Of a stretch of DNA of 64,000 nucleotides, positions 16,101 to 53,369 are shown piece after piece (position 1 is the first letter of the stretch; each line of letters opens with the position of its first letter). Position numbers and translations under genes: made by a program. This stretch comes from Skeletonema tropicum (Eukaryota > Bacillariophyta > Thalassiosirophyceae > Thalassiosirales > Thalassiosiraceae): positions 186,001 to 250,000 of the forward strand of contig CM074127.1 of NCBI GenBank assembly GCA_037178625.1. The letters run 5' to 3'. Under the pieces are notes generated by a model that worked only from the letters and a program-made list of their open reading frames with translations, did not search any database and was not told the DNA's origin.

Positions 16101-17474
16101 ATGATACTTTGTTGAACTATCATGTGATGGTTGACCCTTCAAAGATGATGGCAATGGAGTTATTGGCCAAGCTGTTTGAGTTGGTTTGGTTCGTCGGTGA
16201 ACACCCAAAGTTGCCAATCATTTCATCAAGAATGATCCAGATATCTTTGAAGCACGGCATGAGTCCACTGTCTCCACTTGCCTTTGTGCAGTACGGTAAT
16301 TACAATGCTTTTGTCAGACAAAACTACGAGGTGGGTGTGCAATACGTGAAACTTGGACTGGCTCTGATGAAGCAAAGTCTTTCTCGAGCTCACGATTGTC
16401 AAATAATATTTCATTCAGCTTACACCCGATTGCATGTGGAGCCCATGCAGAGTGCTTGTGAGTTTTTCTTTGATGGGTTCAAGGCAGCCATGAAGAGTGG
16501 AGATACAGGGAATGCAATGAAATGTGCCTACTTTTACGATGCGTGTTGCTTTTGGACGGGCAAGAAGTTAGATGAAGTTGCAAAGTCTATGGAAGAGACA
16601 ATTAAGCAGATGAGATTTCACAAGAACTTGCTATTGATATCTGTTATGCTCCCAATCGTTAGACTGACACTGAGGTTAGCAGGCGAGTCTGTCATACCTC
16701 AGCAAAATAGTCTAACAAGTGTATTTGGCGAAACCCACAGTGAAGAAGACATAGCAGAAAAGTTTTCCTACGTCATGATAGCAGAACAATTTATAGAGTT
16801 CTATGAAGCACTCTTATTCCGAGAGTTGGAGAAAGCGAGGGACTGCGCCGAAAAGTATTTCTCAAAGTTAAGGGGTACAGCCCTGTATCAACGGGTATTG
16901 TGAGTACTACTGAGGTTCATCCTTAATTTTCATCTTTTGTTTCACTCTGGTGCTTACATTTCCGGTCATTTCTTCCTCCACTTCAAGTTACTTTGGCTTG
17001 GTATCATTTTGGATTGGCAGGGAGACGAATGACAAAAAGTGGATAGCGAGGGGTACGGAGTCGAAGGTTTCAATCGAGAAGCTGGCCGCACTAGCTTCCA
17101 TATGGAACTTTCAGAACAGTGAGTTTGCAGATTTTATATGCTATACATATATTATCTAAGCCACGCCATCTCTAATTTGTTGTTTCTATTTACCTTCGTA
17201 TCCAGAAACATATCTTCTCCAAGCTGAGGAGCAATTCTGTGCAAGAAACTTTGATTATGCTGAAATACTATACGAGAATGCAATACTAAGTTCAAAGCAG
17301 CATAAATTTGTGAACGAGGAAGCTCTGGCAAATGAGTTGGCTGGGCATTTCTATCTTGATACAGGCAGAGAGTACAAGTCGTTAAGTTACTTCTGCCAAG
17401 CGGAAGAGAAATACCGTGAATGGGGTGCTGTTGCAAAAGCAAATGAGCTTGCGACATATTTGAAAAGGAATTGA
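13184..17474 (+). CDS. AAA_16 (Orc1-like) ATPase with TPR tail, degenerate kinase-like N-terminus, copy 2
   Basis: Paralogue of the gene at 4852-9194. Exons 13184-16899, 16988-17118 and 17206-17474 join to 1371 residues; introns are 88 and 87 bp and sit at identical positions and phases to those of copy 1. The start ATG gives MTSSTEMHCF. Copy 1 has ATATAT in place of ATGACG here and must start six codons later. Walker A GSSGIGKS and Walker B LVLFLDDCQW are intact. Similarity between the copies is patchy: about 14720-15880 is nearly identical to 6420-7580, whereas the first 60 codons, the segment after Walker A, about 15890-16240, and the introns differ much more. The similarity stops close to the start and stop codons, so the duplicated unit is essentially the gene itself. 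The protein ends at the TPR region like its twin. Confidence 0.88.
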
Positions 17475-32981: not shown

Positions 32982-33177
32982 TCACAGGTAGACTTGGCCC
33001 GCACGAAATCGGATCTCGTCACACCTGTCTTTCTCCTTCTCTTTCTTCCGGCTTCTCGCATCGCTCTGGTCGTTAGGGACAGACAGAAGGGATGTTGAGA
33101 GAGAGAGAACAGCCATGGACATTGTTCATCAAGCACCAATATCGTGTAGAACAATCCTATAGCTGTTCATCTTTTTT
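32982..33177 (+). repeat. Repeat A1 (left split repeat)
   Basis: 196 bp beginning TCACAGGTAGACTTGG and ending GCTGTTCATCTTTTTT, with no difference from 46947-47142 by eye. Perfect identity over 14 kb indicates recent copying or ongoing homogenisation. Confidence 0.9.
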
Positions 33178-33238
33178 ATTGCTACCATGTCGGTCCGTAC
33201 CAGCAGTAGTCATTTAAAAGTCAGCATAGTAAATCTGG

Positions 33239-33600
33239 CCTCTATCAGCCAACCCCTATCGGTCTATACGGCCCCAATATCTCGGCAGTCTGCCAATGGC
33301 TTCTATCAGCCAAACCCTATCGGTCTATACGACCCCAATATCTTGGCAGTCTGCCAATGGCCTCTATCAGCCAAACCCTATCGGTCTATACGACCCCAAT
33401 ATCTTGGCAGTCTGCCAATGGCCTCTATCAGCCAAACCCTATCGGTCTATACGACCCCAATATCTTGGCAGTCTGCCAATGGCCTCTATCAGCCAAACCC
33501 TATCGGTCTATACGGCCACAATATCTCGGCAGTCTGCCACTGGTATCATCGGTCCATGCGGCCCCAAAAAATCGGCACGATACCTGCCATATCTCGATCA
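33239..33600. repeat. 61-bp tandem repeats containing a GGCCCCAATATCTCGGCA motif
   Basis: About five units of 61 bp (each holding CCCTATCGGTCTATACG and CCCCAATATCT(C/T)GGCAG), followed by a diverged sixth with ATCGGTCCATGCGGCCCC. Because 61 is not a multiple of three, the units are read in successive frames. The open frames that result (about 105-170 codons) are a by-product. The same word core appears again at 42256-42352 inside the same element. Confidence 0.88.
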
Positions 33601-33620
33601 GCCTGGTCAGGCTTTCTGAC

Positions 33621-34166
33621 ACAGGATGCGATATTTCGCGTATGTACGGATTCTATACAGTTATGTTATGGTAGGGTATCTAAGATACATTGTATGTAAG
33701 AGGTTGCGCTTTGAGAGGCTTTTGAAGCAAATCACGCTTGATCTTATAGAGAGGAAAAGAAATAAAATAAACAACAGTCAATTGACGCATCGGAACGATT
33801 TCTGAGGAGAAATCTGGAGCAATCCACTTCCTTGTTGGAGAGATCTGACAGAACCGCTATTACTACGCAACCCTCTTACTGCTCTTAACTTGCGCAGACT
33901 TGCAGCAGTAAGAGGGTTGCGTAGTAATAGCGGTTCTGTCAGATCTCTCCAACAAGGAAGTGGATTGCTCCAGATTTCTCCTCAGAAATCGTTCCGATGC
34001 GTCAATTGACTGTTGTTTATTTTATTTCTTTTCCTCTCTATGAGATCAAGCGTGATTTGCTTCAAAAGCCTCTCAAAGCGCAACCTCTTACATACAATGT
34101 ATCTTAGATACCCTACCATAACATAACTGTATAGAATCCGTACATACGCGAAATATCGCATCCTGT
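33621..34166. repeat. 546-bp near-perfect palindrome (263-bp arms, 20-nt loop)
   Basis: The left arm 33621-33883 starts ACAGGATGCGATATTTCGCG. The right arm 33904-34166 is its reverse complement. I saw one mismatch (TCTTATAGAG against TCTCATAGAG). The loop is 33884-33903. Neither arm carries a gene. If transcribed it would form a 263-bp dsRNA hairpin; as DNA it could extrude a cruciform. It may be a fold-back element or an inverted duplication. No clear target duplication flanks it. Confidence 0.93.
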
Positions 34167-35906
34167 TGTATTAACCCGGATTTGCAACCCAAGTAGCAAA
34201 AGTTACAGAGGAATTCGTAGCGTGATTATACAATAAAAATATATCACGGTCAGGAGCGTGGTATGTCGGTCTTAATTGTGGTATTTTATGGTCATTTTGC
34301 AACCGAAGTTGCAAAAATCCTTGCAAAAGAGCATGCTTTTTGCAACTTTTGCAACCCAAAGTAAACGCAGTGTGACAGCGCAGAGCGGTCATTGGTCACA
34401 CTTCTTTTCCATCGCTCCGGCAGGCGCCGATCACCATAAGTACACTCTAGCCCAGCTAGATCAACACACCATCATCTATACGACCGTGCGATAGCAGAAT
34501 ACATTGTATGGCGTTCCCATAAGGCAGCTGAATCGAATGTTATGGCTGATGTCGAACGATATATCGATCATCTAGTAGAGAGACGTATCGTCCATACCAT
34601 ACATCAGCGGCTGACATATTGTGTGTGCCGACACAAATATCACGTTTGGTGTGATAAAAAACGAGTATAATAGAGGATTATGTACGGGGTACAATGATGG
34701 CGCACTCACTACTTGCATGGGTATAGCGTACTGATCGATGAGTCAGTTGGCAACAGAAGCAAGATGAAAATTGACTTGAAAAGCTAATTCAACACACATA
34801 ATGCAAACATGTTCATGGCATTGGGTAATAGGATATATTAGATCTTTCCGAGACACTGCAAATAACATAACATTGAATAACAACTAATTATTGACGGAAC
34901 GTGTGTACGACTTATCATAGAAAAGCATTTTGCCATATGATAGGATGTCAGGGATAAGCGCAACGCACATCACCCTCTTAGACGACAACATCATTGACGA
35001 CCACTCGTCTGAGCACACTCAGAGATAGCCACGATAACATTTCAAACAACATCTCACGTCCACTCAATTGTTGAAAACTGCCGCTGCTGTTGTCGTAGAT
35101 GTGATCTTCCCTCCGGTTTGGATTGATTTGCTGTGAGAAACTAACATAATGCTGCAAGCACACGCGTGCCTCTTTTTCAATGATGCTCTCAGTGATTCTA
35201 TAACGCTAATGACGACGATCGACGGCTCTGACGGAAGCTCACAATATGCAATACCATTTCATGGCCAATGGCGGTGGCTGAACGACGACCCAAGGGCAAA
35301 TGAAGCGCATGTCATGGTAGGCATGTCTTGTGTCTATGTCTTTGTCATAAAGAAAAATCGCATCTTTCACGTGATCTGACATGTGTGACTACTATGTGAC
35401 CATGTATGTGATTACACGGTTGCAAAAATAGTTGCAAATACTCCGAGTACAAGCGTAATAGTCAAGTAGCATACTACCTTTAGGTACGTATGTATCTGTG
35501 ACCATACGGATACGTGCTCGCTAAGCTATCGCTTATCGAGATCTCTCTGCCTGACGCATGCCGCTCTGGATTCTGACTACGTGGAAGTAGTCAGCCCCGT
35601 GAATCGTTACTAAGGTTCTACGTCTTGGAATTAGTACGATTCTGTCCTGTAGCTCTGAGTCACTCATCTTCCATGAGCAAGCTCAACCGCTAGCAGCAGC
35701 TCTCTCCTTCGAAGAGCACACAACTACTCCAAATACGTAAATTAATACTGTATTCATCGTCGTTGTCATTACACATCTATTAGCCTGTGTCATTATTTTA
35801 AAATAACAAGTGCTCTCGTCGACAAGCACCGCAGAAAGCTACCAGATACCTCGAAACGAGAAGAATTTTCCATCCTGGTGAAATATCAGAAGGACTGATC
35901 ATTATC
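34167..35906. other. Internal region of the element, no gene recognised
   Basis: Short frames only. TTGCAAC/GTTGCAA words are frequent at 34180-34365, including an imperfect palindrome centred on GCATGC at 34321-34345. Probably leader of the gag-like gene. Confidence 0.5.
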
Positions 35907-37421
35907 ATGTCGCAAAATGAATTAGCATCGATTTACTTGGCCTACAACACTCTCACCGAGGACAAACGGCCAAAAGAATCTCAGGTAACTCGTGGATACA
36001 TCGAGGATAAAGACAAAGTCGTCTTTCCCATTTTTCCAGTTGCCAAGATTGCCAATGGTCGGAAATGGACTATCGATGGCGGATCAACTAATCATGCCAA
36101 AACTACGGTAACGTACTATTCCCTTCCACATAATGTTGGACAACACACCTACATGGTACTCAAACTCATCGAATATGAAAGTCTAATCTTCGAGCTTGGT
36201 TGGGACGACCACGAGAAGAAGCTCATGACTCAACTCATCTTCAATCAACAAAAAGCGTCCGAGCTAGAAGCCGACATCGCAAACAAATTCAACGGTATCA
36301 CCGGTGATCCTCTCGCTAAGAAGGACATCGACGAATTGAAAAAGACACTATCGCAGCATAAAAAGCAAATCACCCATCATGTGAACTCTCTGAACGATAA
36401 TGCAGATCGTGCAGGAGGTATGCTTGGAAAGCTCATGGGTCATTTCGATAAGAAATTCGCTGTCATCTGGACAACTACTTCAATCAGGGTGCGCCGCACC
36501 AAGTGACGAAGTGGAGGGCAGTCAACCATGCATTTTGCAAGGACGCCATGGACTCTTCCAAAATAATGATCCCTCTGATGTCTTACACAGGGACGGTCTT
36601 CGATGACAAAGACGAAACATCAGACTACTTGATGTGTCGTAAAGCGATGCTCTGCACTCAAACAGAAACAGGGCCTCGTTTGAAAACTCTTAAGGATATT
36701 CTCAAGTGCGCTAATTTATTGTTAGTCGAGCAACATGGTTACGGCCTCGCGGAAGCAACCAGAAGCTACTTGGAATCCAACATTAAATTCCATCGTGCAT
36801 TCACATGCAAGCAGTGGGTAGGGATGATCACAGCAATCAATCAATATCTACGTCTCCTTACCACCTACAAAGATGATGAACAGTACGCGGACAACGCTAG
36901 TATTCCACGTGCCAACGTTCCCTACAACGAAGTGGAGCTGTGCAAGATTGTCTTGGCCAGCATGCCCAGAGAGGTTAGGGATACTCTTCGAGTGACGTCT
37001 CCAAATCGTCCACTTGAAACAGAGCTGGAGCCTTTGGTCGCTCGCATTGACGCCATCTTGGTTCAGCAGAAGACCCAACGCGCTTCAAATCAAACGGATA
37101 AGTCTACCAAGAACGGAGCTTCCAACCCCAACCCTAGAAACCAGAAGAAGAATGGTGGAGGTGGCGGTGGAGGTGGTGGTGGTGGCAATCCAAGTACTAA
37201 ACCTACGCCTGAAAATCCCAAAGACGGTGGGTGTGGCAACTGTCAGAAGAATGGAGTCAAGTAAAGCTTGGTTTACCCATCCTACGGTTCAATGCCGCAA
37301 CTGCGAAGTCAATGGTCAAAAGAAGAGGCGTGATGGTGAAAACCGTCAACTACGCGATCACGAAAAAGAAGAAGGATCTGTGAAGGACCTCATCAAAAGC
37401 GAAATTGCAGCCGCAGAGTGA
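35907..37421 (+). pseudogene. Gag-like gene of the element, two frameshifts
   Basis: Three overlapping frames together read like one protein of about 500 residues: 35907-36506 (starts MSQNELASIYLAYNTL), 36503-37264 in the -1 frame, and the original frame again to 37421. Around 36465-36475 the sense continues as LDNYFNQGAPHQVTKW only in the second frame. Around 37250-37270 it passes from CGNCQKNG to AWFTHPTVQCRNCEVNG, which together look like a Cys/His knuckle. A Gly run (GGGGGGGGGGGG) and a charged tail (KSEIAAAE) follow typical Gag composition. The family call rests on composition, the Cys/His cluster and position near the left end. No typical slippery heptamer is seen at the first shift, so decay is likelier than programmed frameshifting. 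Confidence 0.55.
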
Positions 37422-38383
37422 CGATTCGACAGTTTCTCCCCATAGATTGTTCGGACTGTATTGTCCAGATAACTTCTCCCCATATTCCCTCTCCCCATAA
37501 CATTCATTCCAAGTTTCGCCATCTGAAATGTCGGTGATGAATGAGCTCAGTTGTGTCAGTATCCTCCCCATTTCTGATACAGACTCATCAGCGAAAGTGA
37601 CTCGTGGCGTAGTGGATTTCTTCTTCGGCCGAGAATATCTGCCAATTCTCTATCGGTCCGTGTGGCCAGCTATTTCTGACCTTTCGGTCCTTTTTTAATT
37701 CGTCGGGGGGACCGCAGCGACCTTAGGGGTTGGTGGCGCCCAGAATAAATATCAAGGGAGATTTTTCGGCTTCTAAAATCACGGTCATATGATTCATCTC
37801 AAATATTTCTCACCTCTTATTTTCTCTCAACTCTTCATCGGCTAAATTTTATTTCTTCAGCCATTTCTGCTATCGGAACGGGAGGTTCCCTCACGGCCTC
37901 CAGAGACACATTGTCAACCCCTGCCTTCAATAAAGCAGTTCTCCGCCCGTTCGGAGGGACGGATAAGGGGCGCCTCGCCACCATGACTGATTATTCATTG
38001 ATTTGCTTTGTGGCATCTCCTTGATCACTATGTTATCCGACGGTTCGCTCGAATTAACTCATGGCACCCTCCCCTTTTACGATCCGGAGGGCGACCAGTT
38101 CGTGGGAAACTTAAGCACACGGGCTAAAAAGGATCAACCAGCGGTGGCACCTGTCAATATTTGCAACCTCTTCTACGTTGGGATGATGATAGCGAGTTTC
38201 CATTGGGTTCGCCGTTCTTGGGGAATTAAACAGGGGCGCGCAGAATGGTGCGATAGTGGTGGCGTGCAGCGGTGTATGTGGCGGGTTCAGCGCGGGCCCT
38301 CGGGGCCTGTAAAGTATTGTGTCGTCATCTTGCTGTTGGCCATTTGCTGTGTGGCTTGTCAGTAGTCTTTATACAACGGAATT
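37422..38383. other. Internal region of the element, no gene recognised
   Basis: This is where reverse transcriptase would be expected after gag, but no RT motif (such as YxDD) was found. CTCCCCATA occurs several times at 37436-37498. Near 37640-37690 there are words related to the 61-bp repeats (TATCGGTCCGTGTGGCCAG). Confidence 0.5.
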
Positions 38384-38505
38384 CGGCTATAAAGTTGCTC
38401 TGCAATGACGTTGGCCTTAATTGGTATAATTGTGCTGTGCACAATTTTACCAATTAGTCTCTTTACAATAGAATACGGCTATAAAGTTGCTCTGCAATGA
38501 CGTTG
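38384..38505. repeat. 30-bp direct repeats flanking a 17-bp stem hairpin
   Basis: CGGCTATAAAGTTGCTCTGC and the next 10 bases occur at 38384-38413 and 38476-38505. Between them, AATTGGTATAATTGTGC (38419-38435) and GCACAATTTTACCAATT (38439-38455) form a stem with one mismatch and a 3-nt loop. It could be a small inserted element or a structured RNA signal. Confidence 0.7.
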
Positions 38506-39637
38506 TCAATCTTTATCAATGTGAAAAGAAATGTCTTGAATGCAATAAGCCACGAAGTCCTTATTACAAGCTAGGAGTTTTTCCAGATGATGGTATTAAG
38601 CAATATAACCGAACTCTTTATGATTCATTAATTACGAGTTTCGGTGGAGCTTAGCCACCTTCATCAGCGGTTCTTATTGCGTGGAGACAGGCCACAAAAA
38701 ATTTGAATCAAAAGGTCTCAAGAATGAGAAAAGGCGTGGTAGCTGTCATTGTTCTAACGGTCGTAAGTTTTGTTGGCGTTTCGTGGGCGTGGGCCAGCGT
38801 ACAAGGCATATCTTTTCCATCGGGGAGATCCAAAGTAGCGAGCAAATTACTTCCGGAACTTCAACTTGAAGTGTTGGGATTTTCCCCCCTCCTATCCCCG
38901 CTGAAATGCCCATTTTGATTGTCATTTAGATGCTATATCTTATGATTTAGATCTAAAAATCGCTTGATTTGTGCTAAAAAGGACTTTTCCAGGCTAATTA
39001 AGTCAGAATGTCGATGAGCTTCTTCGTTCTTTCCGGTGTGCATCCCCGTCACCCTCTATTTTCTTAATTTTTTCTCTGAGTGACGTGGTAAACTTCGTTA
39101 CTTAAGGAATTAGTACACTTGATTCCAATCGTCTTACGTCACAAAGTACCAGAAGTCAGGTGTTGGCAAAATCCAATGAACAAAAAAGTATTTAAGTTCA
39201 TGCAGCAAGTACTCAGGTCGACATTGGCTCAATTACATTATCTGCCGAGTCGTCTATTGATGCAAGTCTAAATAGACGCCGACGTTGGTTGCCGACGTGT
39301 TTGCATTTGAATAACTGCCGATCTTTGGCCACGTACTGATCAATACGTCAGTTCTTAACTCCACGTCGACGTCTTGTGTTGAGCTGAATCTTTTTGTCGA
39401 CGTGTTGTCGATGTGTTGAACCACAAGATCTTGTGTTGCCGACGTAGCTTACGAAGGAACTCGTTTACTTCATGACGTGGTTGGTTATTGATTGCATTGT
39501 TCTCTGCTGATTATTGCGCTGGTGCGTTGGCGGCGGTTATGTAGGCAGTTTGTACGTTGTCGAGCCGTTCAACAGCTCTCATAAATTATGCATTGCATCA
39601 TTTACATCATCACATTTCTACATTGTCCGAATAAATA
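38506..39637. other. Internal region, no gene recognised
   Basis: AT-rich and without open frames of note. CGACGT-type words are frequent at 39280-39450 (CGACGTGTTG, CGACGTCTTG, CGACGTAGC). It precedes a predicted three-exon gene. Confidence 0.45.
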
Positions 39638-40496
39638 ATGAAGTTTGGCAACACAAATCCAGTTATATCCACCGTTGGTAGTAATGGTAAGGGCTTCCGT
39701 GCCGTGCGGAATCGGAGCAATGTCGATGCACGTCTTACTTCGTCAGGGGTCAAGACTGCCGCTAAACCGTCGGCTCCTGTCATTGCATTGAGCGTAACAG
39801 ACATCAATTGGCGTTTGGTGCGTACCGACGATCGTATCTTCTTGCTGCTAGCGTCTGTTGCATTAGGCGATGGGTTTGACGTTGCCAAGTTGGAGAAGGA
39901 ACAACTGCTCTTTTCTGCTCTTTCCGTCTTTGAAGTCGGGTCAATCAAGTACATCCTGAATGAACTGTCTGAACATTACCCGAATGTCCCAGTTGGTAAG
40001 ACTGATTCTACTGACAAAGATGATCTGGTGTCTGCAGCGGTCAACTTCTTAATGTTTGCCGCTATTGCTCAGAAAGGAGGTACAAGCCAAGCGCCGTACA
40101 CTTCAAATTGTGAGCATTTTTGGTAAGAGAGAAGGTTAACCTTCGTGTGGTTCAATGATTTTGGTATTTTTGTTCATTGTACCGTTTTACAAATTCTGTC
40201 TTTCCTTTTTACTTACAAGTTTTTTTTTCAACCTTCAACTTCACACCAGTGATGAGAACGGGAAACTTGTACTTGAAGACAAAACTCATTCGGGCTCCCG
40301 TGATCAACCTGTTCAAGATGATGATGAACCGGATTTGTCCGAGAAAGGTGCTGTCACGAAAAAGTCTAAACCGGTACCTGTCGGAGAGAAGGCCTCTCCT
40401 GATTCAACTATCATGTGAGTTTATTTTGTGTGCATGTGCACTGCCGCACTAAGTATCGCTTGCTTATTGAATCATTTTAGTATAATCGATCACTGA
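39638..40496 (+). CDS. Predicted three-exon gene, unknown function, inside the mobile element
   Basis: Exons 39638-40122, 40250-40414 and 40481-40496 join in frame to 221 residues; the introns (127 and 66 bp) have GTAAGA and GTGAGT donors and pyrimidine-rich acceptors. Both junctions split codons in matching phase, which is good support for a real transcript. I do not recognise the protein. The first exon has a small globular-looking part (ALSVTDINWRLVRTDDRIFL, then ALGDGFDVAKLEKEQLLF). The second is acidic and charged (DEPDLSEKGAVTKKSKP), and the last adds only IIDH. It sits just upstream of the helicase remnant and may be cargo of the same inserted element. Confidence 0.6.
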
Positions 40497-40534
40497 ACAA
40501 TTTTACCTAATAAACAAATGCAACTGCCTACGTA

Positions 40535-41592
40535 GACATGCTGATCAAAACACACGAACGACTGAAAGTACCAATAGCTAGGCTCAGGTGTCAATTCAGC
40601 AGCAGGATGGCGGGCAATAACACAGCATACCAGTCGCACTTTTACGGCAGGAGGCTATTCTACACCTTTGATGTGTGCGTAGGTGCACATGTTTGCTTGG
40701 AGTCAGCCAACATCGATCCCAACTCAGGATTGTACGTCTCAGCTATTGGGGTAGTAGTCGAGATCGTTTACGATAAGGATCGCTCCGTTGGACCAAACGG
40801 TAAAGGTGAGGTTAGCCTACCGAAGTACATTGTTGTGGATTTCCCTACATACATACCACCACCAGGCGAGGACCCATGGGACAAGAACAACCCAACGGTG
40901 AGTAAAAGTTGACACACGAAAGACACAAGACAATTGCCACTCTCTGCGAAAACACTACTAACTCATTTCATACTGATACAAATGCATCCTACCCCAACTT
41001 ATTGCGCACAGGACGTGCCAATCCCACCCTACGAGCAGATTTGCAACAGGGGATGCTGCACCGCATTATTCATGCCATTGCAAATTGCCTACGCCATCAC
41101 CATCCACCGCTGTCAAGGACTCGAAGCTGGATTCGACAAAGGAGACCATCGTTGTGGGAGATTAGCAAGTTTCTTGGAACAATGTACGTGGCTACCAGCA
41201 GAGGCAAAACACTTGGCTCCAAAGATCAAGCATACCCGTCGGACAGTGCCATATACTGGACCGGAAGCAACATTTCAACGAACCGATTAAAAAATTGCAA
41301 GAGAAAGCAAAATGGCCAGTTCTGCGAATCGTACAAGAAGCGAGCAAATTGGGTGAAATACTTGGAGGGGAAGGCAGAAGAGTCGAAGACGAGGTATAGC
41401 AAGAGAAAGTTGGAAGAAATCACAGAAACATCGTACGCAGCAGCAATCAAGGGCAATTTCATCAAAGACAGGACAGACCTGACAACCAGGATTACCAACA
41501 TCATAACCAACCCGAACAAGAAGTGGAAAGAAGCGAAGAAGGATCATGAAATCCCAAGTGATTACTTCGCAGGATCTTCATCTGGTGATTAG
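40535..41592 (+). pseudogene. PIF1/Helitron-type helicase C-terminal fragment, frameshifted
   Basis: Exons 40538-40897 and about 41012-41290 are in phase across a 114-bp GT-AG intron. They read through the tail of a PIF1-like helicase: GLYVSAIGVVVEIVYDK (the GLVNGxxGTV region), LPKYIVVDFPTYIPP, then DVPIPP and LQIAYAITIHRCQGLE (the A-TIHKSQG motif VI). Near 41130-41190 the frame is lost; the next conserved piece, GTMYVATSRGKTL (equivalent to YVALSR), lies in another frame and continues with a Lys-rich tail to 41592. The N-terminal Walker motifs are absent, so this is a broken fragment. Such helicases are carried by Helitrons and are common in diatom repeats; Rep/HUH motifs were not seen. Confidence 0.75.
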
Positions 41593-42255
41593 TAAAATTG
41601 ATCACTGCACAGTTTTACAAAACAGACACTTTCTCACCACAAAGAATACAACAACTCAATTAAGCGTCTGCATCTGGTGATCAGTAAAACATCTGCAAGC
41701 GCACGATTCGATATATCAAGCACAGTTTTACAAAAAGACATTTTCTCGCGACGAAGAAAGACAAAGACTAAATCGACTAACGCCCGTGTAAAACCTGTAT
41801 TTCTTTCTCGTACAGACCGATTTAGATGCTCAAAAAGCGCATCTAGTACAGTCAATTTCTCGCTTTCAACAGGTACTTCTTGCTTTCTACATAGGAACAC
41901 ATACAGATCCTACGCCGGTAGTCTCTACCGAGGACTCTACGTGTCCCTAAAGTAAACCTTCTCACTAAAAAACACATGTACTGATTCCTACCTATAACTC
42001 TGTAGAATAATGGGGGTGAAAAATAATGAATTTTCCCACCTGTAATAGAAGGGCACCTGCGGCCCCCTATTACGCTGCTCTGCACTCCATGAACGGGGGC
42101 CCCGAGGGCCGATAAATTTCCTTGTTTGGCTTCTCATCTCGATGGGGGAAAGATGTACGTTATTGTTGTCGCTAATATCGGTTTTATTACTGGTTGGGGA
42201 GCGGAGTTTGTCGTCACGGGGAAGTTGTCTGATGATGTTACTGAGTTTCTGCCAA
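41593..42255. other. Internal region with short direct repeats; possible RNase H remnant
   Basis: TCTGGTGAT(T/C)AGTAAAA followed by CACAGTTTTACAAAA occurs at 41580-41623 and again at 41670-41734. A short plus-strand frame at 42153-42245 reads VIVVANIGFITGWGAEF, which faintly resembles the DAS..GWGA motif of DIRS-type RNase H, with the catalytic Asp replaced. This is weak evidence only. Confidence 0.35.
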
Positions 42256-42352
42256 CATCGGCCTAAATGGCCCCAATATCTCGGCATCTATATGTCAACA
42301 TCGGCCTAAACGGCCCCAGTATCTCGGCACTATGGCCCCAGTCTCGGCACGT
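42256..42352. repeat. Second site of the CGGCC..GGCCCCA.TATCTCGGCA motif
   Basis: Two and a half copies of CATCGGCCTAA(A/T) (or similar) followed by GGCCCCA(A/G)TATCTCGGCA, clearly related to the 61-bp repeats at 33239-33600. Confidence 0.7.
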
Positions 42353-45256
42353 TCTAATGAACAGTCTGCACTCTCTCGGCCTGGTTTGGCCATCAATCTA
42401 TCTCGACTACCTGCCAAGAGGGCAATATTACGGGTCGTGATATCGATGATTAAGTTGAGGTGTCTTTTTGGATTTTCGACCATAACAATTATCATGGACG
42501 GTGTTTTTCGTTGACAAGTGTTTTTTGCGAGGGCGGCCGAGTTGTGGTTATATCGAACGGAATTGGTGGTCTCATTGTTATGGTTTGTTACCCCCTCTGG
42601 AAAAAATTGGATTGGGATTTGGAGCTCGACCCCTAAAAATCATTCATCTGAAAATCAATCGTCAAAAACATCTATCATCTGAAATAAATCAGTGGCCTTA
42701 TGGCAATACATATCACGGTCGCACGACCAATCGTCCATCGAGTTAATTCTCAGCAATTCATTCGCTCTGCTCAATTTAGTTGACTGGCCTGACGTGGGCT
42801 AGTCTTCTATCGTTCTCCCTCTGTGGGACTTTTCTCCGCCCCCTCGGGGGATTTTACTCTATCCATCCTCTTCGGTCTTTTATCTGGTTCTCGATTCATT
42901 GCTCGGCAATTAATTCGACATGATTTTAGTGTCTCTTTGGGCAATTCTTCTATCTATCCCTCTTCGGACTTCACTCAATGCGGGGCAAGTCATCTATCTG
43001 CACCTCTGGAAACATGACCTTATCATCAGGGCTCTCTTCAGCACTTATCCGCACGCTGGAACGGATCAGAGGCCTGGCACTTTTACTTTATCCCATGACT
43101 CCCTGGGAGTTATATCTCGCTCTTTGACGAGCCTATCTATTTCTCGGTTGTTCAGCGCTCAGCGTCTCCTCTAGATCTTCAATCCACTCTCATCGAATTC
43201 AGACTCTTTATCCTCCCCTCCCGGGGTGGTCTCTCTTTCTCTTGCGATTATCCATACCACAATCGGCCCATGGTGAGGTGCCATTTGCCGCAAACTTCGC
43301 AGTAAAATCTTCCTTCCAGACGGCGACGATATTTTACTCTCCCTCATCATCTTCACTCTCATACATTTTCGGGTGTGTGAGGCGTTGAACCAGGGCGTCC
43401 CTGCTGGGATCTCTCTCTGAGTCTGTGGTCGTATGTACCTTGCTAGGGCTAGGGCACCTCGGTCTCTCTCAGGATCCCTCCCGGCAGCTCTGCTTCTCAC
43501 CTTCTGGGCCTCTAACCATATCCCAGTTCAGGGATTGGCTGAACTTTCTGTCGTCTTGTACGACCTCTTTATATCACCTGGTCTCTTTATCAACCACAGA
43601 CGATAGTCTCGATAATTCCCTCTTGGCTAATGTCAAACTAGGGTTGGGACAGTTCATTGAATTCTTCTGCGGTCAAGTGCTCGTTCAGCACTGCAATCTT
43701 GGCTGGGGTGACCCTGTACTTGTATAGCCTCTTGGCCCACCACAGCTTCCGCTTGCACCTGCATATGGGAGTGGAACCGATGATATCGGGGTAAGCGACA
43801 GCTGTACCTTGGGCGCATCATTGGCGCTTGCGGATTAAATACAACCCCCGATTGTAGGAAGGATATCTTCATCTCGGCGCCTTTATCGGCACCATCCGAC
43901 ATTGCACACGCAATACTTATTCTCGCATCATTCAGCCAGCAAGCTATGTTTACGTCTACATATGATCGGGTTCCATGATGGCTTTGTTTTTCTCGCATCA
44001 TTCGGCATTTATTGTCTACTCGCAACTCGATTGCATGGGAAGGAAACTTCTCCCTCTCTTCATCTCGTTCTTCATCGGACCTATCAACTTATTCGCTGTA
44101 CAATTCACATTGGGTGGAGTACAGTATCGCACTCTCTGCTTCGCTTCGCTCCTGCCTTTCTGGTGGTGGGCTCTTGCCACAATTGTCTCTATTCTTCAAT
44201 CCCTATCTCGCTCGTTGTCTCGCGTTCCGGCCTTGACATTTGTATTCTCTTCGGAGACTTTCCTCTTCCCTCTGCGTACAGCTCTCTCGCGGCTCTACCG
44301 CCTCCTGGCGCATTCAACACAATCCGCTGGATCCTCTCTGCTCGACTTGACCAACTCCAAGTCATTCCCCTAATCAATAGTACTGGGTCATCCGTGCTTG
44401 TGATGTTTCTCCGCTATAATTGTCCCGACACTCTCTTGTCATCACAATTCCTCACACCTCTCTCGACTGTCGACTCCAAGTGTTTCAATGTAGTCGTCAT
44501 TCCCACTCTTAACGCCCTCCACATACTGTGATCGCAGGTGGATCGATTCTCAATCACACATCCCCCTGTTTGTACGAGCCACAACAGCTCCCTTCTTTTT
44601 TCGCTCACATTCTCAGTCCCAACTGCCAATCGTTGAAACCGGTTTGGCGTTGTTCGGCATGTCAAACGTACATATTTCTCTTCCACTTTGACCACTCGAT
44701 CGCACACAGCGCACGTGTTATCTCTCATCATTTATATTTGTCTCTCCTCCGACGAGTGGGGGCCTTTAGCTACACTATATTCTCTCAGCATTGGGTTCAA
44801 ATTGGTTGCACTTTTCTGTTCTGGTGTCTCTCCTGCGAATTGGAAGAACTAGTTCAAGGGTTGTTTCAAGATACAACTCTTCGCGACTAGCATCGTAAAT
44901 ATTTGGACCCTTTTCGGTGGGATGTCTCTTTAGAGTCGTCAAACACCACGCGATTCGTCCCGAGTCAGGAATTCCGGTCGGTACTCCACATGGCTGTTCG
45001 TATATAGATATAGGTGTACTGTTGGATCCGCATTGAACAGGCCATTGCAGCGTCTATTGAGTTTATGTTCATCCCGTGAGGAAAATCTGACCTTTCTCGA
45101 CACAGTCTCTTGGGATAAGGTGATAGTTTGATGATTTGATGAGGCCTCTTTATCAGCCGAGGAAGCCCTACTATTGGAATCACACAGCCAAAGAATGGAT
45201 AGTGGTTTCGGAACCCGCGCAGCTCTTCGGTCATCATCCATCTTCCCCTAGTAGTC
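42353..45256. other. 2.9 kb pyrimidine-rich internal region, no gene recognised
   Basis: The plus strand is T/C-rich, so stop codons are scarce and many frames of 60-210 codons are open on both strands by composition. Examples are 43902-44531 on plus and 43654-44025 on minus. I found no RT, RNase H or integrase motif in any of them. Confidence 0.45.
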
Positions 45257-46621
45257 TTGATCCAACCTTTCTGGCATGGAGCGACGAAATTTGGGTGTGT
45301 TTTCTATCATAATCATCCGGATCCGGATCTCATCCGCATCAATGTTTTAGAGTTTTCAGCCAGGTCAAGAGCGTCTCTCCGTCATTACAGAGACATTATC
45401 GACAGGGCAACTATTGAAAGGGAAACTCGTCGATCCACTGCGTCTAAACCGCATCGTACTCGAAAATCCAGGATCATTCACTACCTGAAGTTTTGTGAAA
45501 TGGTCGATGTTAAGGATCCATGCATGGAATCGGCCCCTCTTGAGGCTCGCCATCTCCTCCTTGCATGTTATACCGTCCATCTTATCCAAGGCAATACCAT
45601 CAAGTCTATTCGCATCAAGCACGCTACCCTTCGCGGATATCTCTCTGCTGCGATCGGTCTTCACAGTAATAGAAATCTACCTGACCCAACGGACCCAATC
45701 TTCGTGAAGGAGGACTTGGTCACTCCTCTTCTGCAAGCTGTCAAGTCATACGAATCTGTCAAGAATCGGAAAGAGACGATTTACGACTCTATGCTAGCCA
45801 ATATGTTGAAGTTAGTCCGTCTCCAGCAACCTCATTCGTTAGAGTCCTCTATACTGGATTGGATTTTGCTTGGCCGCTTCACGGGGGCACGTCGCAGTGA
45901 GTGGTGTCAGGACGGTCCAGGCATCGAAATGACCGAACCCACAATTGCTCAGGACACACCTCAACCAAAGGCATTTATAGGGGAGGATTTCCGATTCTTT
46001 GATAAGTCTGGCCATCGCATTTATAATTTGACTCCGGCTCACGTTACTGTGGTGGACGGAGTCAAGATTTGTTGGCGTTTTCAAACGAACAAGGACAATG
46101 GCCAAGTTATTCCTTACAAACGAGATTATGAACGTCCTTCAGTTTGTCCGGTTCTAGCAGCATTTCGTATTGCGCTTCGAGCGTCTGCTCTCAACGTCTC
46201 TGCTTCTATCCCATTAGCAGTGTACGCAGACCCTTCCTCTCCTACGGGTTATGCCCTTATCAGGGCTTCACAAGTGGCGAAATTCATTCGGGGTTCCGCT
46301 CAAACAACCTTCAACCTTAGTCCTACCGACAAATCTCTCCTTAACTGGACGTGTCATTCTATTCGTGTCACGGCAGCGAATATTCTTCACAGGGCCAATA
46401 TGTCCGATTCCTACATCCAAACCCGCCTTCGCTGGAAAAGCAACACATTCCTGATGTATCTCCGCAATTCATTCTACTCGGCAGATCAACATACTGCTGC
46501 AATGCAGATATCTAATATCAATCTCCCTCCTCTGCCTACTACGGACGGCAAACGCTATCGAGATCCCGAACCTCATGAGCTGGCTTATACCAAACACTCT
46601 GCTCTAACCCGAGCGGAATGA
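45257..46621 (+). CDS. Tyrosine recombinase of the element
   Basis: A 454-codon open frame. The true start is unclear: the frame opens with no ATG until MVDVKDPCM (residue ~82), so an upstream exon or a non-AUG start is possible. The N-terminal part is helical and resembles a SAM-like DNA-binding domain. Catalytic landmarks of tyrosine recombinases are visible: the first Arg in FTGARRSEWCQ (about 209), the H-x-x-R box in CHSIRVTAANIL (about 365), and the nucleophile region RWKSNTFLMYLRN (about 393-405, with Tyr at about 402). This arrangement matches DIRS/Ngaro/Crypton recombinases. The enzyme would cut and rejoin a circular copy with the target by a 3'-phosphotyrosine intermediate. It ends 136 bp before repeat B1, the expected position in PAT/Ngaro elements. 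The frame is intact, unlike the gag-like gene. Confidence 0.82.
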   Translation: MIQPFWHGATKFGCVFYHNHPDPDLIRINVLEFSARSRASLRHYRDIIDRATIERETRRSTASKPHRTRKSRIIHYLKFCEMVDVKDPCMESAPLEARHLLLACYTVHLIQGNTIKSIRIKHATLRGYLSAAIGLHSNRNLPDPTDPIFVKEDLVTPLLQAVKSYESVKNRKETIYDSMLANMLKLVRLQQPHSLESSILDWILLGRFTGARRSEWCQDGPGIEMTEPTIAQDTPQPKAFIGEDFRFFDKSGHRIYNLTPAHVTVVDGVKICWRFQTNKDNGQVIPYKRDYERPSVCPVLAAFRIALRASALNVSASIPLAVYADPSSPTGYALIRASQVAKFIRGSAQTTFNLSPTDKSLLNWTCHSIRVTAANILHRANMSDSYIQTRLRWKSNTFLMYLRNSFYSADQHTAAMQISNINLPPLPTTDGKRYRDPEPHELAYTKHSALTRAE

Positions 46622-46756
46622 GGTGCGCTTCTTTTTTTACACCATGTTCCTCTGTGTGGTCATTTCACGCCTATTCCCTACGTTCATTCGTCGTCTTTGT
46701 GTTGACACGAAGTATTCGACATTCTTCACACCTCGTGTCATCACATCTCTCATGGT

Positions 46757-46947
46757 GGCTGACACTGCCGAATTTACTTCGGCTTTCGAGGCTGGGTCCA
46801 AACTTAGAGTAGTTTGTACCTGATTACTAGAGACATCTTTGCATACACATAACGTAGTCTGCAATAAGCAGCTCTAGTACCTCTTTTTCTAGCGTGACAG
46901 ACCACACAGGAGGACCAAGGCGCGACGCCGGTTTTCCGCAGGAAAAT
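46757..46947 (+). repeat. Repeat B1
   Basis: 191 bp from GGCTGACACTGCCGAATTTA to CCGCAGGAAAAT. Direct repeat of 47161-47351 with one difference (GTACCTC against GTACATC). Confidence 0.9.
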
Positions 46948-47142
46948 CACAGGTAGACTTGGCCCGCACGAAATCGGATCTCGTCACACCTGTCTTTCTC
47001 CTTCTCTTTCTTCCGGCTTCTCGCATCGCTCTGGTCGTTAGGGACAGACAGAAGGGATGTTGAGAGAGAGAGAACAGCCATGGACATTGTTCATCAAGCA
47101 CCAATATCGTGTAGAACAATCCTATAGCTGTTCATCTTTTTT
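46947..47142 (+). repeat. Repeat A2
   Basis: 196 bp matching A1 at 32982-33177 at every position compared. It begins exactly where B1 ends (one shared T), so the B1-A2 joint reproduces the joining of the element's right and left ends. Confidence 0.9.
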
Positions 47143-47160
47143 TTCCCACCCACCCGACCC

Positions 47161-47351
47161 GGCTGACACTGCCGAATTTACTTCGGCTTTCGAGGCTGGG
47201 TCCAAACTTAGAGTAGTTTGTACCTGATTACTAGAGACATCTTTGCATACACATAACGTAGTCTGCAATAAGCAGCTCTAGTACATCTTTTTCTAGCGTG
47301 ACAGACCACACAGGAGGACCAAGGCGCGACGCCGGTTTTCCGCAGGAAAAT
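47161..47351 (+). repeat. Repeat B2 (right end of the element)
   Basis: 191 bp, one substitution from B1. After its final GGAAAAT the sequence changes to TGACCGCATTTTC, the putative host flank and SART1 promoter. Confidence 0.88.
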
Positions 47352-47542: not shown

Positions 47543-50056
47543 ATGAGCTCCGACGAAGTAATCGAGCTGTCAATTGAAGAGACGCAGGCGCTCCGTGCCA
47601 AACTTGGCCTAGCTCCCTTGCGCGTCGGCAACAATGATAACACCACCACCAGCACCGCCAATGGTAACGATACCGTCAACACTACGACTGCAACAACTAA
47701 TAACGATGGAGAAATCTCCCTCTCCATAGACGAAACCAATGCCCTCCGTCTTAAAATTGGATTGCCCCCTCTCAACAACAACAGCACATCATCGTCTACC
47801 AAAAAGAAGGATGGAACGTCCGTCTCCACGGCAATACACGCACCACCCAAAAATACCGCAGCGGAATCCGAAGCAAAGCGACGGTTGGAGGATGCACAGG
47901 CCAAACGTGAGGCTAGAGAACGATTGCTCCAATTGGAGCGAGAGAATGAACGTGAATCGGGGGAGGGAGATGAGAGTGCTTTGAATTTTGCCACGAGAAT
48001 GAGGATGCAACAGCAGCAAAAGAAGGTGGTGGAGGAGGATAATAAACGAAGCAAAAAGAAGAAACAGAAAAAGAAGCGTATTCAAAATGCACAGCTCTCC
48101 ATACCCACCGAAGAAGAGGAAGAGAATGGTGACAATCAATATACATCAGCAGACTTGCAAGGGATACAAGTATCCCATGCCACATCGGACTTTCAATCCG
48201 GTTCCACCACCATTTTAACGCTTGCGGACAATTCCATCCTTACCGTTGATCCCGACACACAAAAGGCAACGGGGGTAAATGATACATCTGCTAATAATCC
48301 GCAATTGATCAATGTGAACATGGCATCAGATTCAAAAGCATTGGAGAATTTGAAACGGAAACGACAGATTGAGTTGGGGGTGGGTAGGGCAGGTGGGTAT
48401 GCGGGTTATGATGATGATGAGTTTGAAGAGTTGGGTGGGGTTGGTGTTGTTGCCAATTCCTTGTCTGCTGCTGCAGGCGCAAGTGGTGGTGGTGGTGCAA
48501 ATGGTGGTACGAATAAATCACGTGGGTTTGCCATTGGTGCAAATGGTACAGCCCAATCCACTAATGATGACAAAAAAAAGAATGATTTATTCTCATCATT
48601 ATCTGGTGGAGCAGTCTCACTTGAATCACGATATGGTAGTACCACTATTGCATCTGATTTCCTGACAAATGATGACGAAAATGGCGAAACAATGGAATCC
48701 AAAGAGGAAAAGTTGGAAAAGGAACGTGCCAAACACATGAAATTGTTGGAGAAGATGAGAAAGAAGAATAAGAAAATGATGAAAAAGAAGGATAAGAAAA
48801 AGAAGAAACGACGAGTGCAATCAGATGATGATGAAAGTGAAGAGGAAACCAATCTTGGTAGTAATGGTGGGGGGAATAGTCTCATGGCAAGTTTAGAGGC
48901 AACAGCTGTAGATATCAAGAGTGATGGAATAGGTAGAAAGAGACGGCGAAATGATGATGGCAGCATTATGGACATTGAAAAGTCCACTGATGGTGACATA
49001 GATGAAATTGCTGCAAAGAAGGATAGATTTGATCAGATTATGCAAAAGGGAAAGATGAGAACTGACAAAGCATTTCAGAAAAGTGCACCATTATCAACTC
49101 CAGAGGATGACGATAATGCTGATGATGATGCCTTCTTGAATGCAGCACTTGCCAAAGCTCGTCGTTTGAAACGGCTCAAAGACATGAATGGCGGCACAAC
49201 GTCTAAAGCTGCCAAAGGGGAGGATGCTGTCGTGAATGCTGTCGAAAAGATAAAACAGGAAGAGGCTTCTGCCAATGCAAGAGAGAATGGAACCGAGGCA
49301 CCCAATACAGCAAGTAGTGGAGGTTTGACATTTGAATTTGATGAAATGCAAGAGTTTACACGTGCACTTCGAGCTAGAGAGGATCAAGCAAAGCGTGCGG
49401 CACCTGTTCGAAGTCGTGGTGTGCAATTGTCAACAGTCAAGAAAGAGGTTGTTGTGAAAAAGGAAGAAATGAACGATGCTACTGCTGAACCGATAGTAGA
49501 AGATGTGGACATGGAAGAAATGGCTCGGGAAATGAAAGAAGATGATGACCATAACAATGATGAAGATGACAATGCAGCCTTTGGTTCCACTGCAGACAAT
49601 AGTGGAGTGGGTAGAGGCATGAGTGGGTTTCTATCACTCCTCAAACAGACTGGAGAAATTAAGAATGCTGGAAAAGAAGAATTGCGTGGACGTGCTAAGG
49701 ACAAACGCACCTATGAAGATTACGACAAGTTGGATCTCAAAAAGGTGGTCAAGATCAATAACATCAATGCTCAAGAGAAAGATATTGAATTTGCCAACCG
49801 TGAAATCAAGTTGGAATACAGGGATGACCATGGTCGATTATTAACAAGAAAAGAAGCATATCGAAATATGTGTTATCAGTTCCACGGACATGGATCTTCT
49901 AAGAAGAATGAGGAACGGAGGCAGAAACTAATTGAAAGAGAACGGCAGGAAAATAAGCTGGCATCGCGTCAGGGTGAAGGTGGAGTTGGCACACTGGGTG
50001 CTTTGAAAGCTACTCAAAAGGCTACTGGAAAGGCATTTATTGTTCACAAGACGTAA
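47543..50056 (+). CDS. SART1: SART1/Snu66, U4/U6.U5 tri-snRNP splicing factor
   Basis: A single-exon gene of 837 residues, close to animal SART1 (about 800). The protein is a tri-snRNP component needed for spliceosome assembly and activation. Two copies of the family's N-terminal Hub1-interaction-type motif are visible: ELSIEETQALRAKLGLAPL (about residues 8-26) and SLSIDETNALRLKIGLPPL. The middle is highly charged, with long Lys/Glu runs (KKKDKKKKKRR) and coiled-coil character. The C-terminus is diagnostic: YDKLDLKKVVKINN, DHGRLLTRKEAYRNMCYQFH, GHGSSKKNEERRQKL and GTLGALKATQKATGKAFIVH. It starts 191 bp after the mobile element and is divergent from PAT1. Confidence 0.93.
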   Translation: MSSDEVIELSIEETQALRAKLGLAPLRVGNNDNTTTSTANGNDTVNTTTATTNNDGEISLSIDETNALRLKIGLPPLNNNSTSSSTKKKDGTSVSTAIHAPPKNTAAESEAKRRLEDAQAKREARERLLQLERENERESGEGDESALNFATRMRMQQQQKKVVEEDNKRSKKKKQKKKRIQNAQLSIPTEEEEENGDNQYTSADLQGIQVSHATSDFQSGSTTILTLADNSILTVDPDTQKATGVNDTSANNPQLINVNMASDSKALENLKRKRQIELGVGRAGGYAGYDDDEFEELGGVGVVANSLSAAAGASGGGGANGGTNKSRGFAIGANGTAQSTNDDKKKNDLFSSLSGGAVSLESRYGSTTIASDFLTNDDENGETMESKEEKLEKERAKHMKLLEKMRKKNKKMMKKKDKKKKKRRVQSDDDESEEETNLGSNGGGNSLMASLEATAVDIKSDGIGRKRRRNDDGSIMDIEKSTDGDIDEIAAKKDRFDQIMQKGKMRTDKAFQKSAPLSTPEDDDNADDDAFLNAALAKARRLKRLKDMNGGTTSKAAKGEDAVVNAVEKIKQEEASANARENGTEAPNTASSGGLTFEFDEMQEFTRALRAREDQAKRAAPVRSRGVQLSTVKKEVVVKKEEMNDATAEPIVEDVDMEEMAREMKEDDDHNNDEDDNAAFGSTADNSGVGRGMSGFLSLLKQTGEIKNAGKEELRGRAKDKRTYEDYDKLDLKKVVKINNINAQEKDIEFANREIKLEYRDDHGRLLTRKEAYRNMCYQFHGHGSSKKNEERRQKLIERERQENKLASRQGEGGVGTLGALKATQKATGKAFIVHKT

Positions 50057-53240: not shown

Positions 53241-53369
53241 AAACAATGTCGTGTCAATCGTCGTCAATATGCGCATAAGGAGCTTTTAGTGGCCCATAGT
53301 GGTGGCGATACTACGCAAGCACATTAGCACTGCCCAGACGGATTGCGTTGGTAGAAACGAAGCTACAAC
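53241..53369. repeat. Leftmost, diverged unit of the 189/190-bp satellite
   Basis: Matches the satellite that resumes at 59977: TCGTCGTCA(A/G)TATG, TAGTGGCCCAT, GGCGATACTA, ACTGCCCAGACGGATTGCG. It is more diverged than the inner units, as expected at an array edge. The unit is cut at ..CTACAAC by the LTR element. Confidence 0.8.

What the first reader, a model, noticed from the sequence alone, without database searches (positions are those of the whole stretch)
32982..47351. A 14.4-kb split-direct-repeat tyrosine-recombinase element in a diatom-like genome
The repeat order A1 - genes - B1 - A2 - B2 is read directly: A copies of 196 bp with no mismatch seen, B copies of 191 bp with one, and B1 abutting A2. 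With an intact tyrosine recombinase frame just before B1, this is the diagnostic architecture of PAT/Ngaro elements of the DIRS order. It is large, carries a gag-like gene, lacks a recognisable reverse transcriptase and contains a helicase fragment and a spliced gene. It may be a new family, a non-autonomous form mobilised by recombinase alone, or an element with nested insertions. Near-identical repeats imply recent activity.
Basis: partly seen in the sequence, partly recalled or inferred. Interest (0 to 1): 0.88.

Follow-up and report, generated by a model that had tools for sequence, protein, structure and literature searches.

The report
Diatom recombinase element lacking reverse transcriptase
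This stretch is one recent copy of a mobile DNA family in a marine diatom that kept its own cut-and-join enzyme but lacks the copying enzyme its relatives carry, and its unusual size comes from two other mobile elements that later landed inside it.

Summary
The repeat observation is correct: A1=A2 (196 bp, 100%), B1~B2 (190 bp, one mismatch), B1 abuts A2, and an open tyrosine-recombinase (YR) frame ends 135 bp before B1. The host is very probably Skeletonema tropicum. Other copies show that the element proper is about 6.5 kb; the 14.4 kb span holds two nested repeats, to which the gag-like gene, helicase fragment and spliced-looking gene belong. The core encodes only a YR: no reverse transcriptase (RT)/RNase H is detectable, although three distant SDR-YR elements read in the same genome have one and share the GGAAAA|TC junction. 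Fourteen bodies differ pairwise by 2-24 sites in about 4,645, so the burst is recent. An empty paralogous site shows insertion without target duplication; target sites are enriched for RAAAA, echoing the element's 3' end. Reduced forms exist: A-body-B, and solo A-spacer-B minis laid out like T. cruzi SIRE. Best reading: an RT-less, YR-retaining derivative of a PAT/Ngaro-like retroelement, copied by RT in trans, circularised and integrated by a YR. The trans-RT step is inferred; a DNA-only YR route is not excluded. A lysine conserved in 36 of 37 aligned YRs is Thr here. New variant of a known kind.

The parts
32982..33177 (+). A1, left terminal repeat; element starts TCACAGG
   Evidence: 196 bp, 100% to A2; TCACAGG at every A start anchored by BLAST
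33178..33617 (+). 5' body with 61-bp tandem array (33236-33543, 5.0 copies)
   Evidence: present, with varying repeat number, in other copies; TRF
33618..37616 (+). nested insertion 1 (not part of the element): perfect 263-nt inverted repeat plus gag-like ORFs; 5-bp TSD TTTCT (33613-33617 / 37617-37621)
   Evidence: absent from the seven short-subtype copies that span the site (edges read against L019); gag part: 41 match rows, own place included, 40 of 70 candidates scored; inverted repeat
37622..38226 (+). body of the element, continued
   Evidence: 98.1-98.7% to seven short-subtype copies over 37614-38229
38227..42111 (+). nested insertion 2 (not part of the element): high-copy repeat with helicase-like fragment and spliced-looking ORFs; 2-bp repeat AT at its edges
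   Evidence: absent from the 14 fetched copies that span the site (edges read against L019); 42 match rows, own place included, 40 of 455 candidates scored; PF13538 at E 0.0036, below Pfam's cut-off
42114..45202 (+). body without recognisable coding content
   Evidence: longest frame 230 aa; 12 of 300 dinucleotide shuffles reach it; no RT by tblastn or profile
45203..46621 (+). tyrosine recombinase, open frame of 472 codons plus stop; the first ATG is at 45497
   Evidence: window protein matches PF00589 only below Pfam's cut-off (15.6 vs 27.1 bits), but 34 of 37 aligned family members match at E <= 0.1, best 7.9e-7; AlphaFold pLDDT 87.6, Foldseek best match Cre, E 2.3e-6; R,H,R,W,Y invariant in 37 of 37
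46757..46946 (+). B1, ends GGAAAA
46947..47142 (+). A2, abuts B1
   Evidence: exact junction at 21 genomic places
47143..47160 (+). pyrimidine-rich spacer between A2 and B2
   Evidence: same kind of motif (T run + CCCACCC) after A2 in L030, L031 and L032
47161..47350 (+). B2, right terminal repeat, ends GGAAAA
   Evidence: outer end fixed by empty site

Best explanation
The feature is one copy of a young family of split-direct-repeat (SDR) YR elements, very probably in Skeletonema tropicum: A1-body-YR-B1|A2-spacer-B2, about 6.5 kb (long subtype about 7.2 kb), here inflated to 14.4 kb by two later nested insertions. Shown: the anatomy, the copies, no detectable RT, exact ends, insertion without TSD, and a target preference RAAAA|. 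Inferred: the element is transcribed; RNA is copied by RT/RNase H supplied in trans by the RT-bearing SDR relatives in the same genome; B1|A2 serves as the template that restores the joined end B|A in a circle; a YR, its own or a relative's, exchanges strands at the GAAAA|T joint with a similar target. Recombination between the direct repeats (homologous, or by YR at B|A) then gives the A-body-B and solo A-spacer-B forms.
For: Twenty A1 loci were fetched, 10 kb each: 11 are full SDR copies, 2 are A-body-B (L009, L017), 7 have no B within the fetched DNA. Window 33617 joins 37614 in the seven short-subtype copies spanning it, and 38229 joins 42112 in 14 copies. Fourteen bodies differ pairwise by 2-24 sites in about 4,645; 18 of 19 full-length YR matches have no internal stop. 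A profile of 17 RT homologues scores 1,082-1,314 bits on L030-L032 and at best E 0.84 on the window element, L016, L017 and L019. The RT identity rests on motifs plus Foldseek's top hit, foamy-virus RT (E 8.7e-4, low TM-scores, model pLDDT only 61.6). L030-L032 share the junction GGAAAA|TC and the T-run/CCCACCC spacer. Joined flanks of the window element align through an empty paralogue over query 1-551 at 86%. A at 70 of 140 positions -4 to -1 in 35 distinct left flanks against 26% background, p=1.7e-9. All 27 outer right ends anchored finish GGAAAA.
Against: No RNA intermediate, circle or RT-in-trans event was observed. The family's termini differ in sequence from those of the RT-bearing relatives outside the junction core, so cross-use of the RT is unproven. 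The Lys of the QKN motif (36 of 37 aligned sequences) is Thr in the window and in 13 of 13 other copies checked, which may weaken the YR; one full copy (L016) has a stop in its YR. Seven of 20 A1 loci keep an intact 5' end and lack the 3' end, which circle integration does not predict; these would have to be later deletions or longer interruptions. A circle with two identical B|A joints should also give permuted A-spacer-B|A-body-B copies; none was seen among 21 junctions.
Confidence: 0.6

Rival explanations
1. DNA-only YR transposon: the element is excised and re-integrated as a circle by its own YR, as proposed for Cryptons, and the SDR layout is inherited from a retroelement ancestor.
For: Only a YR is recognisably encoded; no TSD; target sites echo the joint GAAAA|T; A-body-B and solo A-spacer-B are what YR recombination at the two B|A joints would release.
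Against: Both outer ends are constant (27 of 27 right ends GGAAAA), whereas excision would be expected to carry flank bases into some joints; 0 of 21 junctions are permuted; the A2-spacer-B2 module that RT-bearing relatives keep is kept in 20 elements; the conserved Lys is Thr.
Confidence: 0.23
2. Copies of a recently lost or unassembled RT-bearing parent; the family no longer moves.
For: Pairwise divergence is so low that a parent active until recently would look the same; the YR would then be open in most copies only because they are young.
Against: All 67 YR candidates in this assembly were scored (62 matches); outside the family and its fragments the longer matches are only about 27-31% identical. 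The RT profile was run on four copies without a hit, and the other ten bodies compared are near-identical to these.
Confidence: 0.13
3. Sub-question, compatible with the readings above: solo A-spacer-B and A-body-B forms are only remnants of ordinary homologous recombination (A1 x A2, B1 x B2), like solo LTRs, and say nothing about YR.
For: Each is the product of one crossover between the direct repeats (sequence logic); it needs no new mechanism.
Against: Eight dispersed solos, one of them visibly more diverged than the full copies compared (L052), could also be independent mini-elements; not decided here.
Confidence: 0.5
4. A and B are unrelated interspersed repeats that happen to lie in this order.
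For: A-only and A-spacer-B loci exist.
Against: 21 exact B|A junctions, 0 in the control; same order and ends in 20 elements.
Confidence: 0.01

Closest known systems
Ngaro-like / PAT-like (Toc3) SDR YR retrotransposons, order DIRS
   Same: A1-[body]-B1A2B2 layout (as described in PMC8547959 and PMC4157794, passages read), YR near the 3' end, no TSD, RT-bearing relatives with the same junction core in the same genome
   Different: no RT/RNase H, no MT domain and no gag found in the core; about 4 kb of apparently non-coding body instead
SIRE of Trypanosoma cruzi, the short partner of VIPER (PMC6681497, section 6 read)
   Same: SIRE = A2-(about 30 bp)-B2; the solo minis here = A(196)-18 bp-B(190)
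   Different: VIPER encodes RT; the long partner here does not; host lineage differs
TOC1 of Chlamydomonas (recalled, nothing read; one search found no paper)
   Same: RT-less SDR element with solo repeats, as recalled
   Different: TOC1 is not known to me to keep a YR gene
Cryptons, including CryptonS of oomycetes and a diatom (PMC3212892, passages read)
   Same: YR as recombining enzyme without RT; proposed circular DNA intermediate
   Different: Cryptons lack long direct repeats and have 4-6 bp terminal direct repeats; the YR here has its in-genome relatives in RT-bearing SDR elements (3 of 3 read) and gave no DUF3504 match

Membership tests
PAT/Ngaro-like SDR retrotransposon (order DIRS) | split direct repeats A1...B1A2B2 | tested here: met
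PAT/Ngaro-like SDR retrotransposon (order DIRS) | encodes a tyrosine recombinase | tested here: met
   R,H,R,W,Y present; the conserved QKN Lys is Thr
PAT/Ngaro-like SDR retrotransposon (order DIRS) | encodes RT/RNase H | tested here: not met
   tblastn of the three relatives' non-YR ORFs: nothing better than E 0.34; RT profile best E 0.84 in four copies; L030-L032 found as positive controls
PAT/Ngaro-like SDR retrotransposon (order DIRS) | gag-like ORF | tested here: not met
   the gag-like ORFs seen lie in nested insertion 1, absent from other copies; no other gag candidate was recognised, but gag proteins are poorly conserved
PAT/Ngaro-like SDR retrotransposon (order DIRS) | insertion without target-site duplication | tested here: met
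   empty paralogue L055; flank pairs of other copies inspected by eye show no duplication beyond single bases and simple runs
PAT/Ngaro-like SDR retrotransposon (order DIRS) | YR falls with DIRS-order YRs in a phylogeny | tested here: inconclusive
   next in-genome YRs (about 27-31%) sit in RT-bearing SDR elements in 3 of 3 loci read, of 21 longer matches; no named reference YRs were at hand for a tree
PAT/Ngaro-like SDR retrotransposon (order DIRS) | circular DNA intermediate | not testable with these tools
   indirect only: target sites echo the circle joint
Crypton | YR as sole recognisable enzyme | tested here: met
Crypton | 4-6 bp terminal direct repeats, no long repeats | tested here: not met
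   long SDRs present; the RAAAA echo is a tendency, not a fixed repeat
Crypton | DUF3504-type YR | tested here: inconclusive
   no DUF3504 match listed at E <= 0.1 for 37 members, but CryptonS may not match it either (not tested)
SIRE-like mini-element (for the solo A-spacer-B loci) | A2-short unique spacer-B2, dispersed, alone | tested here: met
   8 loci without B1 to the left: L033, L036, L037, L051, L052, plus L035 (5'-truncated), L050 and L053 (internal deletions; L053 lacks the spacer)

The most novel reading that the evidence does not exclude
A split-direct-repeat element that no longer needs reverse transcription: a former DIRS-order retroelement turned into a DNA transposon driven by its YR alone (or by a relative's YR, since its own has lost the conserved QKN lysine), with B1A2B2 acting as a two-site recombination switch that releases both the long element and SIRE-like minis.
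Probability: 0.22. Interest if true: 0.75.

Novelty: new variant of a known kind. Interest (0 to 1): 0.5.

Why it matters
How SDR elements of the DIRS order close their ends and integrate has, to my knowledge, been inferred mainly from sequence. This genome offers near-identical long elements without RT, RT-bearing relatives with the same junction core, minis of the two repeats alone, and an empty target. Together these fix the element's ends almost to the base and suggest a short strand-exchange overlap (RAAAA|T). They also make two open questions directly testable: can a YR-only SDR element move, and are SIRE-like minis mobile or leftovers?

Tried and rejected
Rejected: (1) 14.4 kb as element size. 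(2) gag, helicase and spliced gene as cargo. (3) an RT hidden in the body and known RNA families (none at gathering thresholds). (4) L029, first taken as a diverged lineage (YR 67%): its body is about 1% diverged and only about 45400-46700 is strongly altered, so it is not independent evidence. (5) L040/L041 as an RT-bearing partner sharing A: in the next 5.5 kb (L061) no element or RT match was found. (6) permuted integrants: none among 21 junctions. Led nowhere: viral contigs (27 pattern matches, no relative); Pfam and PDB sequence searches for the RT-like ORFs (no RT hit); two paper searches with 0 hits.

Limits: 40 of 78 candidates were scored for A and for B, and 40 of 100 for A-spacer-B, so copy counts are lower bounds; 3 of 21 longer distant-YR matches were read; the RT profile was run on four copies of the family; the codon-position comparison is spoiled by L029's local damage and is not used. 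One search selected flanks by exact end motifs; one search repeated the ends without that selection. L050's right end is missing (deletion under the anchor) and was read.
Full report
Host. The gene right of the element (47543-50056) is a SART-1 homologue, 82% identical to Skeletonema menzelii. The assembly's contigs C1 (5,737,774) and C23 (1,558,474) equal the upper and lower ends of the chromosome lengths (5,738 and 1,558 kb) given for S. tropicum (PMC11032307, passages read); the totals are 78.39 Mb here and 78.78 Mb there. Species is thus inferred, very probably S. tropicum. That paper's main text has no occurrence of 'DIRS', and no paper in the held library combines Skeletonema, transposable elements and tyrosine recombinase.

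Anatomy. Twenty A1-bearing loci were fetched (10 kb each) and compared. Window 33617 continues at 37614 in the seven short-subtype copies that span it (L009, L017, L019, L022, L024, L026, L028), and 38229 continues at 42112 in these and in the seven long-subtype copies (L010, L013, L015, L016, L021, L025, L027). Alignment with L019 gives nested insertion 1 at 33618-37616 with TSD TTTCT, and nested insertion 2 at 38227-42111 with a 2-bp AT repeat. The remaining element is 6,478 bp by these coordinates. Both inserts recur elsewhere: 41 match rows with 40 of 70 candidates scored for the gag part of insertion 1 (two further copies match only 35455-37415), and 42 rows with 40 of 455 candidates scored for insertion 2; own places are included. 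The 14.4 kb 'element' is therefore a nest.

Coding content. The YR is a genuine tyrosine recombinase: the window protein matches PF00589 only weakly (15.6 bits, cut-off 27.1), but 34 of 37 aligned family members match at E <= 0.1, best 7.9e-7; the AlphaFold model (pLDDT 87.6) matches Cre first and then Tn1549 and lambda integrases; and R132, H287, R290, W313 and Y321 (numbering of window:45497-46618) are invariant in 37 of 37. One caution: position 197, Lys in 36 of 37, is Thr in the window and in 13 of 13 other copies checked; in the model it lies between two strands (188-193 and 203-208), where the catalytic Lys of YRs usually sits (that placement is recalled knowledge). Eighteen of 19 full-length YR matches in the genome have no internal stop. 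The rest of the core has no recognisable gene: the longest frame in 42114-45202 is 230 aa, reached by 12 of 300 shuffles, and the three ORFs of it that were scanned have no Pfam match.

RT. The genome's other longer YR matches are about 27-31% identical. Three of those 21 loci were read (L030, L031, L032). All three are SDR elements with a large ORF upstream of the YR that has RT- and RNase-H-like motifs (motifs recalled: VDDAL; DAC, LEF, DN-SA--W, AD-ISR). Pfam does not recognise it. Foldseek of a low-confidence model (pLDDT 61.6) puts foamy-virus RT first (E 8.7e-4, TM-scores below 0.2). A profile from 17 homologues finds this ORF in L030-L032 at over 1,000 bits and finds nothing better than E 0.84 in the window element, L016, L017 or L019. 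tblastn of the relatives' ORFs against the window element and L016 agrees. So the family is an SDR element that has the YR and lost, or never had, the RT. The relatives share its joint (GGAAAA|TC) and the T-run/CCCACCC spacer after A2.

Forms. The exact B|A junction occurs at 21 places, 0 in the backwards control. In 19 of 21 an A-spacer-B follows directly, judged by coordinates; in one A2-B2 carries a deletion (L044), and in one A2 appears interrupted, with its remainder in L038. None is seen followed by a body. This makes 20 SDR elements, one of which (L015) has an extra A-spacer-B unit. Three loci end after B1 with no A2B2 (L009, L017, L043); L009 and L043 share a right flank but not a left one. 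Eight loci are A-spacer-B without B1, three of them damaged. Of the 20 fetched A1 loci, 7 (L011, L012, L014, L018, L020, L023, L024) have no B within the fetched DNA. Ordinary homologous recombination between the direct repeats explains the reduced forms as well as YR action does.

Age. Fourteen bodies differ pairwise by 2 to 24 sites in about 4,645: a recent burst.

Insertion. The last 82 bp of the left flank belong to a dispersed repeat (40 matches, 40 of 103 candidates scored, own place included). In L055, a paralogue of the whole flank, the two flanks are joined without the element, aligning over query positions 1-551 at 86% through GGGTGATTT|TG: no duplication. Four other repeat copies (L056, L057, L059, L060) align across the joint with gaps; L058 stops two bases past it. 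In 35 distinct left flanks the four bases before TCACAGG are A at 70 of 140 positions (26% expected; p=1.7e-9), and position -5 is G or A in 29 of 35; 25 right flanks show no clear bias. This mirrors the element's own 3' end GGAAAA. A strand-exchange overlap of about RAAAA between a B|A circle joint and the target would produce this pattern; that step is inference. Outer ends are constant: 27 of 27 right ends finish GGAAAA (two, L025 and L051, with one T fewer just inside).

Comparison. By layout it belongs with PAT/Ngaro-like elements, but it fails the RT criterion, so it is filed as a derivative that probably works like one, not as a member. The minis repeat the SIRE/VIPER relation of T. cruzi, where the authors leave open whether SIRE is mobile or a remnant (PMC6681497, section 6). 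Cryptons are RT-less YR elements but lack long repeats (PMC3212892, passages). Searches for an RT-less, YR-keeping SDR element in print listed none by title or by the part of the abstract shown; no listed paper was read in full.

Noticed in passing
window 33621-34166: A perfect inverted repeat (263-nt arms, 100% complementary, 20 nt between) at the left edge of nested insertion 1.
   Followed up: no
window 38227-42111: Nested insertion 2 belongs to an abundant, uniform repeat (455 candidate places, 40 scored) carrying ORFs and a helicase-like fragment; its class was not determined.
   Followed up: partly
L029 (C12:1763000-1770999): A copy whose YR region is heavily altered (substitutions and indels) while the adjoining body is about 1% diverged; local hypermutation, conversion from an older copy, or assembly error.
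   Followed up: partly
L012 240-280 and 560-600: An exact 41-bp direct repeat flanks a 3'-truncated A1 fragment.
   Followed up: no
window 4840-9194 and 13190-17474: A 4.3-kb direct duplication, 90% identical, with long ORFs.
   Followed up: no
window 59972-64000: Tandem satellite of about 190 bp units running off the window end; a related stretch at 53249-53369.
   Followed up: no
L030-L032: A divergent RT/RNase-H-like protein family of about 950 aa in diatom SDR elements and 17 public proteins that Pfam does not recognise.
   Followed up: partly
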